Assembly (NCBI GenBank): GCA_017938925.1
Contig: JAGBAO010000013.1
Location: 289,037 to 353,036 of the forward strand
Direction: 5' to 3'
Length of the DNA: 64,000 nucleotides
Source of the DNA: Bacteroidales bacterium
GTDB taxonomy: Bacteria; Bacteroidota; Bacteroidia; Bacteroidales; UBA932
Made by a program: the position numbers and the translations under genes. Of this stretch, positions 1,215 through 7,208 are shown piece after piece; positions within the stretch are counted from its first letter, which is position 1, and each line of letters begins with the position of its first letter. Below the pieces are notes generated by a model. It was not told the DNA's origin. It worked only from the letters and a program-made list of their open reading frames with translations, and did not search any database.

Positions 1215-2840
1215 ATGGATAGAAGAGATTTCATAAAGACCACCGGATGGTCAATGCTTGGTCTGGCTGCATCAGGCAGCCTTCTGGGCTCGTGTACACC
1301 CGGCAGCAAGGAGGCAAGAAAGATAATGCCGACTCCTTCCGGAATGAAGATGTTCTGGGGAGACCTCCATAATCACTGCAACCTCACCTATGGACATGGA
1401 GACATGAGGGATGCATTTGAAGCGGCAAAAGGACAGCTGGACTTTGTCAGCGTCACACCACATGCCATGTGGCCGGACATTCCGGGGAAGAACGACCCTC
1501 GTCTGAGCTGGGTGATAGACTATCACACCGATGCTTTCAGAAGACTCCGCAAGGGAGGATACGAAAAGTATCAGGCAATGACCAAGGAATATAACAAGGA
1601 AGGTGAATTCCTGACATTCATCGGCTATGAGGCACACAGCATGAAGCATGGAGACCACGTGGCTCTCCACCATGATCTGGACGCACCTCTGACCGGCTGC
1701 AGCTCAATCGAGGACTGGAAGGAGAAGTTCAAGGGACAGAAGGTGTTCGTGACCCCTCACCACATGGGATATCAGACAGGATACCGCGGATATAACTGGG
1801 ATTTCTTCAGCGAAGGCGACCAGACTCCGTTCGTGGAGATGCTTTCACGTCACGGACTTGCAGAGGGAGACATGGGAGATATCAACTATCTCCATGACAT
1901 GGGACCTCGTCAGTGGGAAGGAACGATCCAGTACGGTCTGAGCCAGGGTCACAAATTCGGAATCATGGGCTCGACAGACCAGCATTCAGGATATCCCGGA
2001 AGCTATGGTGACGGACGAGTGGGTGTGCTTGCAGAAAGCCTCACACGCGACAACATCTGGGAGGGTCTGCGTACCCGCCACACCTGCTGTGCAACCGGAG
2101 ACAAGATAAACATAGACTTCCGTCTCAACGATGCGTTCATGGGTGACGTGACCAAGGGTGACAGAAGGCGCATATATCTGAATGTAACCGGAGAAAGCTG
2201 CATCGACTATGTGGACATCGTCAAGAACAACAGGCTTATAGCCCGTCTGAACGGTCCTCTGATTCCTCAGATGCCGGCAGGAGACACGGTCCGTTGCAAG
2301 ATCAAGATGGAATACGGCTGGAACAGGGAGGAGAAATATGTCCCTTGGAACGGAAAGATCTCCATCGACAAGGGAAGGATCCTGAGCGTGACTCCTTGCT
2401 TCCGCGGGGCAGCCTTCACATCTCCTCAGGAGGGTGAGACGGAATTCCACACCCACATCAACAGGATTGTCAGTGTCAGCGAAACCGCCGCAGAACTGGC
2501 TCTGCATACCACAAAGAACCCTAACACAGTGACTCCTGCAACCCAGGCCGTAATACTTGATGTCGAGATGCCGCTTGACGGAGTCATCACATCAGATTTC
2601 AACGGACAGGCATTCAGCCACACTCTGGCCGAACTTCTTGAGGGCTCTCGCTCGCACTTCATGCGCGGCTGGCTCAGCGAGGCGGTACTGTTCAACAGAG
2701 CTATGCCTGAAAGCTGCTGGCAGATCGAGCATTACATGGAAGACTGCGAACCGGAAAACGACACGGACTTCTACTACATCCGCGTCCGCCAGAAGGACCA
2801 GCAGTGGGCATGGAGCTCCCCTATCTGGGTGGAACGATAG
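1215..2840 (+). CDS. DUF3604 protein, Tat-exported lipoprotein
   Basis: A 541-residue protein of the DUF3604 family, which resembles PHP-type metal-dependent phosphoesterases; its reaction is not established. I chose the ATG at 1215 over the in-frame ATG at 1176 because the later start gives a clean twin-arginine signal (MDRRDFIKTTGW) followed by a hydrophobic stretch and the lipobox LLGSC, and avoids overlapping the sulfatase. The mature start has DLHNHCNLTYGHGD, a PHP-like metal-binding His motif, and later PHAMW, PHHMGY, HDMGPRQWE and STDQHSG, all candidate metal ligands. Tat export suggests it folds with its metal before export and is then lipid-anchored. DUF3604 genes are often seen beside sulfatases and glycoside hydrolases, as here. 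The family call is firm; the function is unknown. Confidence 0.85.
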   Translation: MDRRDFIKTTGWSMLGLAASGSLLGSCTPGSKEARKIMPTPSGMKMFWGDLHNHCNLTYGHGDMRDAFEAAKGQLDFVSVTPHAMWPDIPGKNDPRLSWVIDYHTDAFRRLRKGGYEKYQAMTKEYNKEGEFLTFIGYEAHSMKHGDHVALHHDLDAPLTGCSSIEDWKEKFKGQKVFVTPHHMGYQTGYRGYNWDFFSEGDQTPFVEMLSRHGLAEGDMGDINYLHDMGPRQWEGTIQYGLSQGHKFGIMGSTDQHSGYPGSYGDGRVGVLAESLTRDNIWEGLRTRHTCCATGDKINIDFRLNDAFMGDVTKGDRRRIYLNVTGESCIDYVDIVKNNRLIARLNGPLIPQMPAGDTVRCKIKMEYGWNREEKYVPWNGKISIDKGRILSVTPCFRGAAFTSPQEGETEFHTHINRIVSVSETAAELALHTTKNPNTVTPATQAVILDVEMPLDGVITSDFNGQAFSHTLAELLEGSRSHFMRGWLSEAVLFNRAMPESCWQIEHYMEDCEPENDTDFYYIRVRQKDQQWAWSSPIWVER

Positions 2841-2868
2841 TAAAATCATAATTGTAATTGATCCTATT

Positions 2869-2914
2869 CTCAATGTGTTCCTGCAATAATCATAACACCC
2901 AGGAGCACATTGAG
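2869..2914. repeat. long inverted repeat at left edge of cassette array
   Basis: A 15-base arm (2869-2883) pairs with 2900-2914 with one G-U-type mismatch, leaving a 16-base AT-rich loop. It sits 28 bases after the DUF3604 stop codon. No T-run follows, so it is not a classical intrinsic terminator. The AT-rich cassette array begins right after it. It could be a transcript-end structure or a scar of the array's insertion; the sequence does not decide. Confidence 0.6.
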
Positions 2915-3168
2915 AAGTTATTTATAGGGGCCGCTCTGCACCCAGAATAATAGAAGAAGATAGTGAAGAAGAATCGCCTTGGCCGGAAGAGGATGAAGAA
3001 ACTGAGGAGCTGCTCAGACAAGCTTTTCCCGGTAGGGATGAAGAATTCTACGAATACGGCAAATGGGGCGGAGGGGCAATGGATTCCAATGTTTTTAAGC
3101 AATTAGCATCAATGGAACAATTGGCGATTATAGTATATTTATCAGAATTGGGTTTATATATAAAATAA
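2914..3168 (+). pseudogene. 5'-truncated remnant of cassette lipoprotein
   Basis: An open frame from just after a TGA at 2911 to TAA at 3166 with no usable start codon and no signal peptide. It encodes an acidic stretch (EEDSEEESPWPEEDEETEE), then FPGRDEEFYEYGKWGGG, then a tail ending LSELGLYIK. The FPGRDEEFYEYGKWGGG block recurs almost unchanged in the three TAG-bearing lipoprotein genes at 5037, 5761 and 6475, so this is a decapitated copy of that family. Where those copies have TAG, this one has GAG, giving the likely ancestral codon (Glu). Its stop is 5 bases before the next cassette gene, the same spacing as in the intact units. An intact gene using a rare start cannot be excluded. Confidence 0.65.
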
Positions 3169-3173
3169 CTACG

Positions 3174-3626
3174 ATGAAGACTTTGTTTATAACTTTCATA
3201 TTGTGCATCTGTTTTGGATCATATGCACAACAAGTCAATACAGCTTACATTATTTTTCAAGATTCCGACAAAGCTGTCTATGGTATTGATCACTTATATT
3301 CAACTAATTACGACACTAACGAATATAGATGTGAAACTCATGCTTTTCTATCAACAGACGATAGGGTTGGCTTTTATCATACCTTCGTGTATGACAATCC
3401 AATAAATAAGCCCGACAATCCGATTCTAATTAAACCTGCCAGTTTTCTGGAGACTATTGAACACATCGATTGGAATGTCTATACTAAAGATTTTTCCCTG
3501 CAGGAATATCGCGAACTCGTTCAAATGCTTGATACATACGACAAGGTATACTTCATTGACCGAGCGGAAATAAAGAACGGTATGATGAAAATGTATCCTG
3601 TCAAGGAAATGAAGTCATTGTATTAG
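3174..3626 (+). CDS. secreted cassette protein A (unknown family)
   Basis: A 150-residue protein with a Sec signal peptide (hydrophobic core then SYAQ, cleavage about residue 18-19). I do not recognise the family. It is one of six tandem paralogs (3174, 3850, 4532, 5293, 6013, 6708) sharing a layout: a short beta-like start (YIIF, YVTF or YVVF), a variable middle, a block NP-I-x-KPxSFLETI-x-DW, then an almost invariant C-terminus YFIDRAEIK-x-GMMKMYPVKE. Predicted location is periplasm or surface. The gene lies 5 bases after a lipoprotein remnant and 15 bases before the next lipoprotein, so it is part of one long transcript. The gene is clearly AT-richer than the flanking sulfatase genes. The function is unknown; the strongly conserved end and diversified middle recall ligand-binding or immunity-type families, but that is inference. 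Confidence 0.85.
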   Translation: MKTLFITFILCICFGSYAQQVNTAYIIFQDSDKAVYGIDHLYSTNYDTNEYRCETHAFLSTDDRVGFYHTFVYDNPINKPDNPILIKPASFLETIEHIDWNVYTKDFSLQEYRELVQMLDTYDKVYFIDRAEIKNGMMKMYPVKEMKSLY

Positions 3627-3641
3627 TGATATACATATCGC

Positions 3642-3839
3642 ATGACCCGATATCTCAGCATATTTTTCTCCTTGCTACTCCTCACCAGCTGCCAGCTTGA
3701 GGAGATGTGGGACGATGTCAAAGATGAGTCTAAGGAAACATTCACCATCGAAGAGGCAAGGGAGTTCTTTGAAGAATTACCATTTGAAAGACAGAAATCG
3801 ATAGCAAATTTTTTAAGAGAATCAGGTTTATTTTTATAA
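3642..3839 (+). CDS. small cassette lipoprotein, intact copy
   Basis: A 65-residue lipoprotein with lipobox LLTSC (Cys17), followed by an acidic mature part QLEEMWDDVKDESKE and then FTIEEAREFFEEL. It is the only lipoprotein of the array without an internal stop or truncation. Its first 28 residues align with the three TAG-bearing copies (MEEFWDGVSN there, LEEMWDDVKD here). Its end (LPFERQKSIANFLRESGLFL) aligns in pattern with their tails, but it lacks the FPGRDEEFYEYGKWGGG block. It lies 15 bases after gene A and 10 bases before gene B, so is presumably co-translated with them. The function is unknown. Acidic stretches shaped like FTIEEAREFFEE occur near the N-terminus of other Bacteroidota lipoproteins, from memory only. 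Confidence 0.75.
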   Translation: MTRYLSIFFSLLLLTSCQLEEMWDDVKDESKETFTIEEAREFFEELPFERQKSIANFLRESGLFL

Positions 3840-3849
3840 AATTACATAT

Positions 3850-4296
3850 ATGAAGAAGATATTTCTTATTCTAACACTTAATTTGTTTAGCATTGCTCTG
3901 TTTGCACAATCAAACTCTCTATATGTAACTTTTATAGAGAGTACTGATACAGAAAACAGAATAAGGCATGACGCATGGGGAAGCTACGACACTCTATTTT
4001 TCAGGTATGAGCCGCATTCTTTCAGAGTAAAACAGAGCGGAGTAATTCGTAGCTTTTCATATGCTAATTTAAATAGTCAACCTGATGAACCGGTAATGAT
4101 ACAAACGATTTCCTTTTTAGATACTGTAGAATATCTGGATTGGAATAGTGAAATAATGAATTTTTCACGTGATGAGTTCTACGCATTTCTACACAGTCTC
4201 GAATCATACGACAAGGTATACTTCATTGACCGAGCTGAAATCAAAGACGGTATGATGAAAATGTATCCTGTCAAAGAAATGAAGTCATTGTATTAA
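3850..4296 (+). CDS. secreted cassette protein B (unknown family)
   Basis: A 148-residue paralog of cassette protein A, with signal peptide ending IALFAQ (cleavage near residue 20). The middle reads FSYANLNSQPDEPVM then ISFLDTVEYLDW, and the C-terminus is the conserved YFIDRAEIKDGMMKMYPVKE. It groups with A and E: these three use the shorter central loop with an F-x-x-x-E-Y/F-Y region and lack the RCP-x-HFF cysteine motif. Its last 70 or so bases are nearly identical to those of gene A although the middles differ, a sign of exchange between copies. Downstream comes a 235-base stretch in which the expected lipoprotein gene has decayed. The function is unknown. Confidence 0.85.
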   Translation: MKKIFLILTLNLFSIALFAQSNSLYVTFIESTDTENRIRHDAWGSYDTLFFRYEPHSFRVKQSGVIRSFSYANLNSQPDEPVMIQTISFLDTVEYLDWNSEIMNFSRDEFYAFLHSLESYDKVYFIDRAEIKDGMMKMYPVKEMKSLY

Positions 4297-4531
4297 ATGA
4301 GCATATAATGAAACTACTCTGAAAGAATCTCATATTTTATTTCCCACGATTGCAGGCTTGGTACAAGCCTTATAACCGGTTTCATGGGAAATCCCTGCCA
4401 ATTGGGAGGATTTCAGTCAGTTGCTCTGATGTCTGCATTATTTTTACTGCAAGACACACATGGGAAAACACTTTCTTATAGGGCAGTACTAATATCTGCA
4501 TCCTTAATAAATACATAATTAGAAATGGATT
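4297..4531 (+). other. decayed spacer where a cassette lipoprotein is expected
   Basis: No intact gene is seen in these 235 bases. The last 30 bases (about 4503-4533) match the end of the lipoprotein copy at 6475 (tail reading YIIRNGL then TGA overlapping the next ATG), so the 3' tip of a lipoprotein gene survives. The rest has stops in that frame. A short perfect inverted repeat AGGCTTG-GTA-CAAGCCT lies at 4354-4370. An open frame without a good start runs through about 4310-4519 in another frame and looks like noise. The segment therefore holds a deleted or replaced lipoprotein gene. Confidence 0.5.
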
Positions 4532-5017
4532 ATGAATAATTTTATAAAACGAATAGCATTATTATCTATATCTTTATTTTTCGCTAGCTGTCTTTATGGG
4601 CAGAATAACATCTGTTATGTAGTTTTCACACATGTTGAAGATTTCAAAAGCAAGGTAAGCAGTATTGGACATTTGCCACCGGAATCAGCAACAGCCTACG
4701 ACCCCATGAAGGAAAGATGTCCTGCACACTTTTTTACACCGTGCCATAGAGACAACAAATTCTATAGAATATATGAGTATGAAAATCCAATAAATAAACC
4801 CAATAATCCGATTATCAATAAGCCTGTCAGTTTTTTAGAGACTATCGATTTCTTAGATTGGGATAAGGATACTGTCGACATGAGTTATCGAGAATTAGTG
4901 TCTCTAATAAATGACATCAATGCTCATGACACAATATATTTCATCGACAGAGCAGAGATAAAGGGCGGAATAATGAAACTATATCCTGTCAAAGAACTGA
5001 AATTAGCCTATTTTTAA
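4532..5017 (+). CDS. secreted cassette protein C, possible lipoprotein
   Basis: A 161-residue paralog of the array. The signal segment ends SLFFASCLYGQN; FASC can serve as a lipobox (Cys20) or the signal may be cleaved after LYG, so anchoring is undecided. The middle contains RCPAHFFTPC, a cysteine-bearing motif shared with D and F, then NPINKPNNPIINKPVSFLETIDFLDW, and the C-terminus IYFIDRAEIKGGIMKLYPVKE. Its first 150 or so bases are nearly identical to those of gene F, while the second half is more divergent. The ATG overlaps a TGA remnant (ATGA), the same junction as at gene F. The function is unknown. Confidence 0.85.
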   Translation: MNNFIKRIALLSISLFFASCLYGQNNICYVVFTHVEDFKSKVSSIGHLPPESATAYDPMKERCPAHFFTPCHRDNKFYRIYEYENPINKPNNPIINKPVSFLETIDFLDWDKDTVDMSYRELVSLINDINAHDTIYFIDRAEIKGGIMKLYPVKELKLAYF

Positions 5018-5036
5018 ATACAATTATTGACAACAC

Positions 5037-5279
5037 ATGAAACGATATGGTTCCATACTCTTTTCTCTGCTCCTCCTTGCCGGATGTCAAATGGAGGAGT
5101 TCTGGGATGGTGTTAGCAACTAGCTGCTGAGGGAAAGTTTCCCAGGAAGGGACGAGGAATTCTATGAATATGGGAAATGGGGTGGAGGAGCGTTTAACTC
5201 AAAGGCATTTGATAACTTAAATAAAGAAGATCATAACCGTATCTATTCCTATTTAAGAGAACTTAGAATATTATTCTAA
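5037..5279 (+). pseudogene. small cassette lipoprotein with in-frame TAG, copy 1
   Basis: From ATG 5037 the frame encodes a lipoprotein signal with lipobox LLAGC (Cys17), then QMEEFWDGVSN, then TAG at 5121-5123 (codon 29). The same frame continues without another stop for 51 codons through FPGRDEEFYEYGKWGGG and a tail ending YLRELRILF, to TAA at 5277. Two further copies (5761, 6475) carry the same TAG at the same codon. The remnant at 2914 has GAG there. Options are a 28-residue product (a mature lipopeptide of 12 residues), readthrough to 80 residues, or a nonsense allele spread by duplication. Many genes in this window end with TAG (for example 1176-2840, 14215-15918), so genome-wide recoding is unlikely. 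Confidence 0.7.
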
Positions 5280-5292
5280 AAACATAATACAA

Positions 5293-5745
5293 ATGAAAAC
5301 AATACTTACTATAATATTTTCATTAGCCTGCATAATAGGAGCAGCACAAGAAAAAATCATCTATGTCGTATTTACCGATTGCGACCAAGATAATCCAGGG
5401 ATTAGTAATTTGCCACCATCAAACGACTATAATTCCAATAAATTCAGATGTCCTATCCACTTTTTTAGGCCGAGGAATCCTAAAGTTAACTTTTATAGAA
5501 CATACTATTATTCGAATCCAGTTGATTGTCCAGATAATCCAATTATATATAAGCCAGTCCGTTTTTTAGAGACAGTAGACTATCTTGATTGGGACAAGGA
5601 GACTATAGAAATGAGTTACAAGCAATTAGTATCTATGATAAATGAAATCAACACTCATGACACAATATATTTTATCGATAGAGCCGAAATCAAAGACGGC
5701 ATGATGACACTATATCCTGTCAAGGAGGCAAAATCATTATTCTAA
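5293..5745 (+). CDS. secreted cassette protein D (unknown family)
   Basis: A 150-residue paralog with signal peptide ending IIGAAQ. The middle has RCPIHFFRPRNPKVNFYRTYYY, then NPVDCPDNPIIYKPVRFLETVDYLDW, and the C-terminus is IYFIDRAEIKDGMMTLYPVKEAKSLF. About 125 bases around 5560-5685 are nearly identical to gene F, and its last 60 bases are nearly identical to gene E, including the intergenic spacer and the start of the next lipoprotein. Start spacing from the preceding lipoprotein stop is 13 bases. The function is unknown. Confidence 0.85.
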   Translation: MKTILTIIFSLACIIGAAQEKIIYVVFTDCDQDNPGISNLPPSNDYNSNKFRCPIHFFRPRNPKVNFYRTYYYSNPVDCPDNPIIYKPVRFLETVDYLDWDKETIEMSYKQLVSMINEINTHDTIYFIDRAEIKDGMMTLYPVKEAKSLF

Positions 5746-5924
5746 AATTGATAATAGCGCATGAAGCTATATGGTTCCATACTCTTTTCTCTGCTCTTCA
5801 TTGCCAGCTGTCAAATGGAGGAGTTCTGGGATGGTGTTAGCAACTAGCTGCTGAGGGAAAGTTTCCCAGGAAGGGACGAGGAATTCTATGAATATGGGAA
5901 ATGGGGTGGTGGAGCATTTAACTC
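5686..5924 (+). repeat. 239-base direct repeat, first copy
   Basis: This segment runs from the last 60 bases of gene D through the spacer and into the following lipoprotein as far as the AACTC after the conserved tryptophan-glycine block. It recurs at 6400-6638 with only a handful of substitutions and no gaps, at a period of 714 bases. Such repeats allow unequal crossing-over and gain or loss of whole cassettes. Confidence 0.85.
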
Positions 5925-6006
5925 ATCTGCATTTGATGCTTTACCGATTGAAGTGCAAGATTCAATTCAACTTTACTTAATAAATTTAGGCTTACTCAGA
6001 CACTGA
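5761..6006 (+). pseudogene. small cassette lipoprotein with in-frame TAG, copy 2
   Basis: Starts at ATG 5761 with lipobox IASC, then QMEEFWDGVSN and TAG at 5845-5847 (codon 29), exactly as in the copies at 5037 and 6475. The frame stays open beyond the TAG through FPGRDEEFYEYGKWGGG and then a tail unlike the other copies (SSAFDALPIEVQDSIQLYLI and onward) to TGA at 6004. The tail keeps the pattern F-x-x-L, a polar stretch with I, and YL near the end. It sits 15 bases after gene D and 6 bases before gene E. Confidence 0.7.
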
Positions 6007-6012
6007 TAAATT

Positions 6013-6459
6013 ATGAAAAATATACTGATATTTCTATTTACAATGGTAAATATGGCATTATATGCACAGACAGATGTCGTATATGTTACATTCAATAACA
6101 ATACAACAGGGGCAGGAATTCGGCATTCCGCACCACAAGACTATGATATAGATATTTATAGATATCCACCGCACTTCTTTAGGCTGTCTGTGACAAAAGA
6201 AGGTATTTATAGAACATTCTTCTATGCCAACTTGAATAGTCAAACAGATAATCCTGTCACATGTAAGCCAGTTTCTTTTCTTGAAACGGTTGATTACATT
6301 GACTGGGATGAATACACGAAAGGATTCACTGCCAAAGAATATTACTCTTTTATCCAATATTTAGGTAAATGCAATATGGTCTATTTCATCGATAGAGCTG
6401 AAATCAAAGACGGTATGATGACACTATATCCTGTCAAGGAGGCAAAATCATTATTCTAA
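6013..6459 (+). CDS. secreted cassette protein E (unknown family)
   Basis: A 148-residue paralog, signal peptide ending MALYAQ. The middle reads FFYANLNSQTDNPVTCKPVSFLETVDYIDW and the C-terminus YFIDRAEIKDGMMTLYPVKEAKSLF. It is closest to B in its middle (YANLNSQ) but its 3' end is that of D, showing mixed ancestry. Start spacing from the previous lipoprotein frame is 6 bases. The function is unknown. Confidence 0.85.
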   Translation: MKNILIFLFTMVNMALYAQTDVVYVTFNNNTTGAGIRHSAPQDYDIDIYRYPPHFFRLSVTKEGIYRTFFYANLNSQTDNPVTCKPVSFLETVDYIDWDEYTKGFTAKEYYSFIQYLGKCNMVYFIDRAEIKDGMMTLYPVKEAKSLF

Positions 6460-6638
6460 AATTGATAATAGCGCATGAAGCTATATGGTTCCATACTCTT
6501 TTCTCTGCTCCTCCTTGCCAGTTGTCAAATGGAGGAGTTCTGGGATGGTGTTAGCAACTAGCTGCTGAGGGAAAGTTTCCCAGGAAGGGACGAGGAATTC
6601 TATGAATATGGGAAATGGAGTGGTGGAGCATATAACTC
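6400..6638 (+). repeat. 239-base direct repeat, second copy
   Basis: Second copy of the repeat at 5686-5924. It covers the end of gene E, the 15-base spacer and most of the conserved part of the third TAG-bearing lipoprotein. The identity stops where the variable lipoprotein tail begins. Confidence 0.85.
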
Positions 6639-6711
6639 AGAAAGATTTAAATCCCTTTCAATACAAGAACAGAAGCAAATATTGTCTTACATAACTAGAA
6701 ATGGATTATGA
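6475..6711 (+). pseudogene. small cassette lipoprotein with in-frame TAG, copy 3
   Basis: Starts at ATG 6475, lipobox LLASC, then QMEEFWDGVSN and TAG at 6559-6561 (codon 29). The frame then continues through FPGRDEEFYEYGKWSGG to a tail SERFKSLSIQEQKQILSYIT and TGA at 6709-6711. That TGA overlaps the ATG of gene F (ATGA, 6708-6711), the arrangement used for translational coupling. The overlap would be pointless if translation always ended at the TAG 150 bases upstream, which weakly favours some readthrough or recent loss. Confidence 0.7.
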
Positions 6712-7190
6712 ATAATATTATAAAACGAATAGCATTATTAGCTATATCTTTATTTTTCGTTAGCTGTCTTTATGGGCAGAATAAGATCTGTTATGTAGTT
6801 TTCACACATGTTGAAGATTTCAAAAGCAAGGTAAGCAGTATTGGACATTTGTCGCCAGAATCAGCAACAGACTATGACCCTGTGAAGGAAAGATGCCCCT
6901 ACCACTTTTTTACGCCATGCAATCGAGTTGTTAAATTCTATCGAACATACGTGTATGAAAATCCAATTAATAGTCCAGACAATCCAATTGTATATAAGCC
7001 AGTCTCGTTTTTAGATACAATAGACTATCTTGATTGGGACAAGGAGACTATAGAAATGAGTTACAAGCAATTAGTATCTCTGATAAATGAAATCAACACT
7101 CATGACACAATATATTTCATCGATAGAACTGAAATAAAAGACGGTATGATAAAAATGTATCCTGTCAAGGAAATGAAATCATTGTATTAG
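6708..7190 (+). CDS. secreted cassette protein F, mosaic paralog
   Basis: A 160-residue paralog. Its first half is almost identical to gene C (signal with SLFFVSCLYGQN, a possible lipobox, then ICYVVFTHVEDF and RCPYHFFTPC). Its third quarter (about 7000-7120) is almost identical to gene D, and its 3' end including the TAG stop and the following GTGATA matches gene A. It is therefore a mosaic built from at least three array members. The C-terminus is IYFIDRTEIKDGMIKMYPVKE. It is the last unit of the array; a promoter-like element for the next sulfatase begins 18 bases after its stop. The function is unknown. Confidence 0.85.
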   Translation: MNNIIKRIALLAISLFFVSCLYGQNKICYVVFTHVEDFKSKVSSIGHLSPESATDYDPVKERCPYHFFTPCNRVVKFYRTYVYENPINSPDNPIVYKPVSFLDTIDYLDWDKETIEMSYKQLVSLINEINTHDTIYFIDRTEIKDGMIKMYPVKEMKSLY

Positions 7191-7208
7191 TGATAACATA
7201 TAAATTAC

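What the first reader, a model, noticed from the sequence alone, without database searches (positions are those of the whole stretch)
5037..6711. The same in-frame TAG at codon 29 in three lipoprotein copies, with the frame open beyond it
At 5121, 5845 and 6559 a TAG interrupts three lipoprotein genes at the same codon. After it the frame stays open for about 50 codons through FPGRDEEFYEYGKWGGG into tails that differ in sequence but keep a shared pattern (F-x-x-L, then I and Y-L near the end). A decayed copy at 2914 has GAG at this point. If translation always stopped, the tails should collect stops. In the last copy the tail's TGA overlaps the next ATG. So either the TAG is read through, or a nonsense allele was spread recently by duplication, or a 12-residue lipopeptide is the product.
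Basis: seen in the sequence. Interest (0 to 1): 0.85.

Follow-up and report, generated by a model that had tools for sequence, protein, structure and literature searches.

The report
Toxin-gene stumps in an immunity-gene array
The three stop codons are real, but they sit in leftover stumps of toxin-like genes lying between intact genes that probably protect the cell from such toxins, so this looks like gene decay copied by recombination rather than a stop codon that the cell reads through.

Summary
In detail: TAG at 5121, 5845 and 6559, always codon 29, each followed by an open, patterned tail. A relative changes its meaning. In a congeneric genome (G325) the same tail ends an intact 505-aa secreted protein with an HEYMH zincin-like C-domain, followed 7 nt on by a gene 43% identical to one of the ~150-aa secreted proteins between the window's "lipoproteins". 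Paralogues keep the N-domain and swap the C-domain: the layout of polymorphic toxins with downstream immunity. The window holds six stump/partner pairs: all six partner genes are intact, no stump keeps the HExxH part. The TAG lies where leader and toxin end join, inside a block shared between units (97% over 258 nt), so recombination copied it. At the divergence seen, three open tails are expected without read-through (P about 0.4-0.7). No tRNA(CUA) among 34 tRNA matches; RF1 present. Verdict: a decayed toxin array kept as an orphan-immunity array. Toxin activity, immunity activity and termination at the TAG are inferred.

The parts
2914..3168 (+). stump r0: acidic, linker-like stretch plus C-terminal end of the toxin-like protein (LLRQAFPGRDEEFYEYGKWGGG...), no start or signal peptide left in frame; GAG (3007-3009) where r3-r5 have TAG
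   Evidence: 57% identity to residues 448-500 of P0002
3174..3626 (+). partner gene 1 (putative secreted immunity protein, 150 aa)
3642..3839 (+). stump r1: 65-codon lipoprotein ORF without in-frame stop; read as the start of the toxin-like protein joined to its very end by internal deletion
   Evidence: two short matches to P0002, residues 37-52 and 482-503; E 0.003 and 0.005 for that single comparison. Its first 44 residues also align with leader plus post-TAG stretch of r3-r5 (48-53% identity), so the exact deletion is not settled
3850..4296 (+). partner gene 2 (148 aa)
4512..4535 (+). stump r2: only the last ~7 codons of a tail remain, overlapping the next ATG
   Evidence: (D4)
4532..5017 (+). 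partner gene 3 (161 aa)
5037..5279 (+). stump r3: lipoprotein leader (28 codons), TAG 5121-5123, 51-codon tail
5293..5745 (+). partner gene 4 (150 aa)
   Evidence: 43% identical to the gene behind P0002 in G325
5668..5925 (+). homogenised block (3' end of partner 4, leader, TAG, up to GGGA), 97% identical to 6382-6639 with sharp edges
5761..6006 (+). stump r4: leader, TAG 5845-5847, 52-codon tail
6013..6459 (+). partner gene 5 (148 aa)
6382..6639 (+). second copy of the homogenised block
6475..6711 (+). stump r5: leader, TAG 6559-6561, 49-codon tail whose TGA overlaps the next ATG
6708..7190 (+). partner gene 6 (160 aa)
   Evidence: dN 0.124, dS 0.55 against partner 3

Best explanation
The region 2840-7200 is an array descended from a Bacteroidales polymorphic-toxin-like locus, probably acquired horizontally. 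The ancestral unit was a lipoprotein/secreted toxin-like gene (N-domain, acidic linker, zincin-like C-domain) followed closely by a small secreted immunity-type gene. In this genome the toxin genes have been lost by internal deletion. Six toxin stumps of different decay remain, each in front of an intact immunity-type gene. In three of them a leader of 28 codons is joined to the last ~50 codons of the toxin, and the TAG lies at that join. Recombination between conserved blocks (3' end of one immunity-type gene, through the next leader, to GGGA) homogenised the units and copied the TAG into three of them. Translation most likely stops at the TAG. The open tails are former toxin C-termini that have not had time to decay, and their patterned residues reflect selection in full-length ancestors. 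What selection keeps is the set of immunity-type genes. Shown: anatomy, homology, block sharing, constant N-domain with variable C-domain, gene order in relatives. Inferred: toxin activity, immunity activity, horizontal origin, termination at the TAG.
For: Tail = C-terminus of intact 505-aa P0002 in G325; the matches of r3, r4 and r5 start at residue 453, which faces the TAG. P0002 carries HEYMH and HHEYM; no HExxH occurs in any stump in any forward frame (the one hit in the array, at 6315, is out of frame inside a partner gene). The gene 7 nt behind P0002 is 43% identical to partner 4. Paralogues share the N-domain and differ in the C-domain: two more in G325, five N-domain matches in G656 of another family; the three intact ones in G656 are followed after 2, 5 and 6 nt by a small gene with a signal peptide by eye. 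P. intestinalis has a partner homologue beside a gene 38% identical to another small gene of the G656 array. 6 of 6 partner genes intact; dN/dS about 0.23 for the closest pair. By these searches the own genome has no N-domain match and only C-terminal stumps. Partner genes 33-35% GC against 51.5% for the rest of the window. The homogenised block has sharp edges around the TAG. Homology of r0 with r3-r5 begins inside the TAG/GAG codon. Open tails expected by age alone. No tRNA(CUA) in 34 tRNA matches, RF1 present, TAG ends 8 of 40 long ORFs in the window. RNA after the TAG of r4 folds no better than shuffles, z +0.54.
Against: No toxin or immunity activity was tested. Pfam has no family over cut-off for the six partners or P0002; NCBIfam none for P0002, the G325 partner and partner 4; PHROGs none for P0002 and partner 4. 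The partner model matches no solved fold at E <= 0.001. So 'toxin' rests on architecture and HExxH. r1 is an intact 65-codon ORF and the leaders keep a lipobox by eye (Pfam LPAM_1 below cut-off for r1), which pure decay does not require. Among the TAG copies, codons 1-23 after the TAG show two silent and one replacement change; per site dN is 0-0.019 and dS 0-0.14, which leans to constraint but is too little to tell. Block identity dates the last exchange, not the origin of the TAG, so the TAG could be older. The assembly is a draft (34 contigs, 91.92% complete), so a suppressor tRNA or a full-length toxin gene could be missing. Homologues are rare: the partner profile hit 2 of 300 genomes of the genus, one of them the own.
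Confidence: 0.82

Rival explanations
1. Programmed or tolerated read-through: the TAG is decoded at some rate and yields ~80-residue surface lipoproteins.
For: Three frames open for 49-52 codons; codons 1-23 after the TAG differ between r0 and r3 by 13 synonymous and 3 non-synonymous changes; among the TAG copies per-site dN (0-0.019) is below dS (0-0.14) in two of three comparisons; a published survey argues that in-frame stops with low dN/dS are widespread in bacteria (PMC7918605, abstract read).
Against: The r0/r3 constraint is explained by the full-length parent. Open tails are expected at this divergence. No tRNA(CUA) found, RF1 present, no structure signal after the TAG, TAG is an ordinary stop in the window. 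The TAG sits at a join between leader and tail.
Confidence: 0.05
2. The stop is functional: a 28-codon leader makes a 12-residue lipopeptide (CQMEEFWDGVSN), or acts as a leader ORF that sets translation of the next gene.
For: Leader with lipobox by eye kept in three copies; acidic residues after the cysteine; overlapping stop/start at 4532 and 6708 suggests that toxin end and partner start were once translationally coupled.
Against: Leader similarity is explained by the shared recombination block. Within it the leaders carry 2-4.5 replacement against 1-1.5 silent changes per pair (per-site dN/dS roughly 0.5-0.8, few changes), so no strong constraint is visible. r1 lacks the stop, and r0 and r2 lack the leader, so it is not a general feature of the array.
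Confidence: 0.08
3. The small lipoproteins are genuine genes in their own right (r1-like), and the TAG is a recent loss of three of them; the partners are not immunity proteins.
For: r1 is an intact ORF that aligns over its first 44 residues with leader and post-TAG stretch of r3-r5.
Against: Four stumps match the end of a 505-aa protein and r1 two separated parts of it (weak); partner relatives sit behind proteins of toxin layout in G325, and partner-like small genes do in G656. No convincing free-standing relative was found in 151 and 400 genomes of the genus; one weak match in G339 lies in a 79-codon frame and cannot be ruled out.
Confidence: 0.05

Closest known systems
Orphan immunity-gene arrays made by sequential displacement of effectors (Vibrio cholerae T6SS, Kirchberger et al. 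2017, PMC5361080; passages read)
   Same: Strings of divergent immunity-type genes whose effector genes are gone, an effector 3' end left behind, inferred horizontal origin.
   Different: Here toxin stumps keep a lipoprotein leader fused to the toxin end, and no intact toxin was found in the genome. Whether the genome has a T6SS was not examined.
Tandem immunity paralogues that recombine through conserved blocks (EsaG/TipC, Garrett et al. 2022, PMC9484751; abstract and section list read)
   Same: Homologous blocks drive exchange and copy-number change among immunity paralogues.
   Different: Firmicute T7SS systems; the abstract speaks of no toxin stumps.
Polymorphic toxin systems (Zhang et al. 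2012, PMC3482391; passages read)
   Same: Constant N-terminal part, exchangeable C-terminal domain, HExxH peptidase domains among the C-domains, immunity gene downstream.
   Different: The N-domain here matches no Pfam or NCBIfam model over cut-off; secretion route unknown.
SitA/SitI lipoprotein toxins of myxobacteria (PMC8546572 abstract; PMC5562445 passages)
   Same: Lipoprotein N-part with exchangeable C-terminal toxin and cognate immunity.
   Different: SitA C-domains are nucleases acting in the cytoplasm; here zincin-like and other domains with exported partners; genes for outer membrane exchange were not sought.
rAID orphan-immunity arrays of Bacteroidales (PMC12247911; passages read)
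   Same: Co-oriented short immunity-type genes in a Bacteroidales genome.
   Different: No tyrosine recombinase near the array.

Membership tests
Polymorphic toxin/immunity system (ancestral locus) | constant N-terminal region with exchangeable C-terminal domains | tested here: met
   G325: two paralogues 88% and 66% identical to P0002's N-part, C-parts differ; G656: five N-domain matches with differing C-ends
Polymorphic toxin/immunity system (ancestral locus) | small immunity gene directly downstream | tested here: met
   gene order in L033 (7 nt gap) and L098 (2-16 nt gaps for five pairs); adjacency only, function not shown
Polymorphic toxin/immunity system (ancestral locus) | C-domain is toxic and the partner neutralises it | not testable with these tools
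   needs expression experiments
Orphan immunity array with displaced effectors | several divergent immunity-type genes intact while their toxin genes are gone | tested here: met
   6 of 6 partner ORFs intact, 0 of 6 stumps with HExxH
Orphan immunity array with displaced effectors | remnant toxin ends beside immunity genes | tested here: met
Orphan immunity array with displaced effectors | acquired horizontally | tested here: inconclusive
   33-35% GC against 51.5% and rarity in the genus; no donor identified
rAID array | tyrosine recombinase next to the array | tested here: not met
   nearest Phage_integrase match on the contig ends at 59069; the array lies at about 291900-296200 of the same contig
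rAID array | conserved intergenic motifs | not tested
   motif not taken from the paper
Recoded or read-through gene | decoding tRNA for UAG | tested here: not met
   no CTA anticodon among 34 tRNA matches; genome 91.92% complete
Recoded or read-through gene | purifying selection on the tail after the stop arose | tested here: inconclusive
   two silent and one replacement change among the TAG copies in codons 1-23
SitA-type lipoprotein toxin | lipoprotein with C-terminal nuclease delivered by outer membrane exchange | tested here: inconclusive
   cysteine-containing signal sequences by eye; C-domains seen are HExxH-bearing, peptidase-like or hydrophobic by eye; TraAB not sought

The most novel reading that the evidence does not exclude
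The array is the relic of an undescribed family of lipoprotein-borne polymorphic toxins of Bacteroidales. Its N-domain matches no Pfam or NCBIfam model over cut-off, its C-domains are swapped, and the loci keep the same neighbours (a transglutaminase-like gene and a Wzy/TPR gene, 33-41% identical) beside toxin- or partner-type genes in three genomes of three families. The window would show how such a locus turns from a weapon into a shield, with toxin stumps recording the steps. Read-through of the TAG is the bolder sub-reading, at about 0.05.
Probability: 0.4. Interest if true: 0.6.

Novelty: new member of a known kind. Interest (0 to 1): 0.36.

Why it matters
It turns an apparent recoding case into an example of how open, patterned tails behind a stop can be left by toxin-gene loss and unit-to-unit recombination. 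It also points to a toxin/immunity-like family in Bacteroidales that the family libraries used here do not name, with an array that preserves toxin ends beside their likely immunity genes, which makes specificity testable pair by pair.

Tried and rejected
Searches that led nowhere: viral contigs for the partner (46 pattern stretches, no relative), the tail (21 stretches, no relative) and P0002 (nothing); phages for partner 4 and P0002 and plasmids for P0002: no match. Pfam, NCBIfam and PHROGs gave nothing over cut-off for the partners and P0002 as far as given. The PDB sequence search with P0002 gave only unconvincing matches, best E 0.021. The predicted fold of partner 4 (mean pLDDT 73.2) matched nothing in the PDB at E <= 0.001.

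Weak rows dropped: of 8 of 400 genomes, the own genome and G325 are strong; the other six have E 0.00076-0.047. Read again (six weak loci and one further weak place of the own genome), none of the frames found carries HExxH and the resemblance is confined to about 13-30 residues; G339 (79-codon frame) stays open. Of 6 of 393 genomes one is the own; of the five weak others only G542 was inspected. Of 4 of 334 one is the own; G519 looks genuine by eye (HEMYH, then FYE and a similar end), G658 and G695 look like chance (an aminotransferase-like and a DNA polymerase III-like protein by eye). G591 was not inspected.

Rejected: RNA structure stimulating read-through; general TAG recoding; rAID.

Full report
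What is there. The three TAGs are in place, at codon 29 of frames starting at 5037, 5761 and 6475, and the frames stay open for 51, 52 and 49 codons after them. The tails are not random: shuffles of their last 28, 29 and 26 codons are stop-free in 7%, 13% and 9% of cases, and F, L, I and Y are invariant in the four tails compared. The region is a repeat array of two alternating kinds of gene: six intact ORFs of 148-161 aa with signal peptides by eye (the "partners"), and in front of each a small remnant (r0-r5). The partner genes have 33-35% GC against 51.5% for the rest of the window.

What the remnants are. A profile of four tails searched in 400 genomes of the genus found one strong relative outside the own genome, in G325, E 1.2e-23, in an open frame of 515 codons. 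That gene encodes 505 aa (P0002): a signal sequence, an N-domain, a D/E/P/G-rich linker, and a C-domain with HEYMH and later HHEYM, ending in MLREAFPGESDEFYEYGKWGGGAFDSDAFDELPLSEQYKIIQYLQNNDLMSK. The next gene, 7 nt behind, encodes 150 aa and is 43% identical to the window's partner at 5293. In the own genome only the C-terminal pieces r0 and r3-r5 match P0002, and nothing matches the N-domain. r1 matches P0002 in two short separated pieces, near residue 45 and at the very end (weak: E 0.003 and 0.005 for that single comparison); it also aligns over 44 residues with leader and post-TAG stretch of r3-r5, so its exact deletion is not settled. r2 keeps only the last seven or so codons of a tail. 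No remnant holds HExxH in any forward frame. A more distant protein, in G519, has the same order of a zincin motif followed by FYE and a similar end.

The ancestral locus has the layout of a polymorphic toxin. In G325, contig 43 holds a 526-aa and a 228-aa paralogue with the same N-part (88% and 66% identity) and different C-parts. In G656, of another family in the order, five N-domain matches lie within 10 kb. Each is followed after 2-16 nt by a small gene with a signal peptide by eye; three look intact (2, 5 and 6 nt), two have lost or broken parts but keep theirs (12 and 16 nt). Four of the five carry HEIYH or HEMYH in the C-part; Pfam gives a sub-threshold match to Aspzincin_M35 for one of them (25.5 bits, cut-off 30). 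In Phocaeicola intestinalis a partner homologue (35% identity) lies next to a gene 38% identical to a small gene of the G656 array, with no N-domain or C-domain match in the 12 kb held: two orphan genes of this kind side by side. G325, G542 and G656, three families, also share flanking genes: a transglutaminase-like gene and a Wzy/TPR gene, 33-41% identical over their longest matches (Pfam names for G656). In G542 only a partner-like gene was found there.

Why the TAG does not need read-through. First, the matches of r3, r4 and r5 to P0002 all start at residue 453, which faces the TAG codon, and the homology of r0 with r3-r5 starts inside the TAG/GAG codon. The TAG therefore lies at the join of two segments of different origin. 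Second, the units share a block, 5668-5925 against 6382-6639, 97% identical with sharp edges, which runs from the 3' end of one partner through the next leader and the TAG to GGGA; r3 has nearly the same leader and the same TAG. The TAG was thus copied with the block and counts once. Third, the block is young. Pairwise differences run from 4 of 156 nt (r4/r5) to 8 of 156 (r3/r4) over leader plus post-TAG stretch; with 1-3% divergence per lineage, all three frames escape substitution stops with probability 0.72-0.38 (indels were not modelled, and exchange between units may hide a greater age of the TAG). Fourth, the strong constraint between r0 and r3 (13 synonymous and 3 non-synonymous changes in 23 codons) is what a segment of a full-length toxin gene would have built up. 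Among the TAG copies only three of those codons differ, two silently and one not; per site dN is 0-0.019 and dS 0-0.14, which leans to constraint but is too little to tell. Fifth, none of 34 tRNA matches reads UAG, RF1 is present, and 8 of 40 long, largely non-overlapping ORFs in the window end in TAG. The genome is 91.92% complete, so a missed tRNA cannot be excluded. The RNA after the TAG of r4 folds no better than shuffles.

How it most likely works. Toxin genes and immunity-type genes came as pairs. In this lineage the toxins were lost by deletions that kept either the leader and the end (r1, r3-r5), or an acidic stretch and the end (r0), or almost nothing (r2). The immunity-type genes stayed intact: 6 of 6, with dN 0.124 and dS 0.55 for the closest pair. 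The last ~20 nt of the r5 tail and of r2, and the starts of the partners behind them, are 95% identical over 80 nt, which suggests that toxin end and partner travel together. The expected benefit is protection against toxins of neighbours, as argued for Vibrio arrays (PMC5361080, passages read). Protection was not tested.

Compared with what is known. Displacement arrays in Vibrio (PMC5361080), recombining immunity paralogues in firmicutes (PMC9484751, abstract and section list), rAID arrays (PMC12247911, passages), polymorphic toxins (PMC3482391, passages) and SitA lipoprotein toxins (PMC8546572 abstract, PMC5562445 passages) cover the principle. The rAID recombinase is absent nearby. I saw no paper on this toxin family in the listings; those listings show 15 of 58, 12 of 15, 12 of 21 and 5 of 10 papers, so this is a statement about those rows only.

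Verdict. The finding is best filed as an orphan-immunity array with toxin stumps, a new member of a known kind, whose main new content is a lipoprotein toxin-like family unnamed in the libraries used.

Noticed in passing
L098 3703-14682 (G656 C62): Array of five lipoprotein-type genes with one N-domain and different C-domains (HE[IM]YH in four, the fifth looks by eye like a cysteine peptidase), each followed by a small gene with a signal peptide; two copies are themselves decayed.
   Followed up: partly
L033, L035, L098: Same neighbours beside the toxin/immunity-type genes in three genomes of three families: a transglutaminase-like gene and a Wzy_C/TPR gene.
   Followed up: partly
L015 5249-6396: Phocaeicola intestinalis carries two small secreted immunity-type genes in tandem without a toxin-like gene in the 12 kb held.
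   Followed up: partly
L046 176-2244: Paralogue with a hydrophobic C-terminus followed by a 203-aa membrane protein (by eye) whose end (VEELRSKGVEVKC..YKGRMIYL) recurs in other small genes of L046, L033 and, less exactly, L009.
   Followed up: no
window 4297-4511: About 215 nt between partner 2 and the r2 tail end that matched no other unit in the comparison of intergenic pieces; origin unknown.
   Followed up: no
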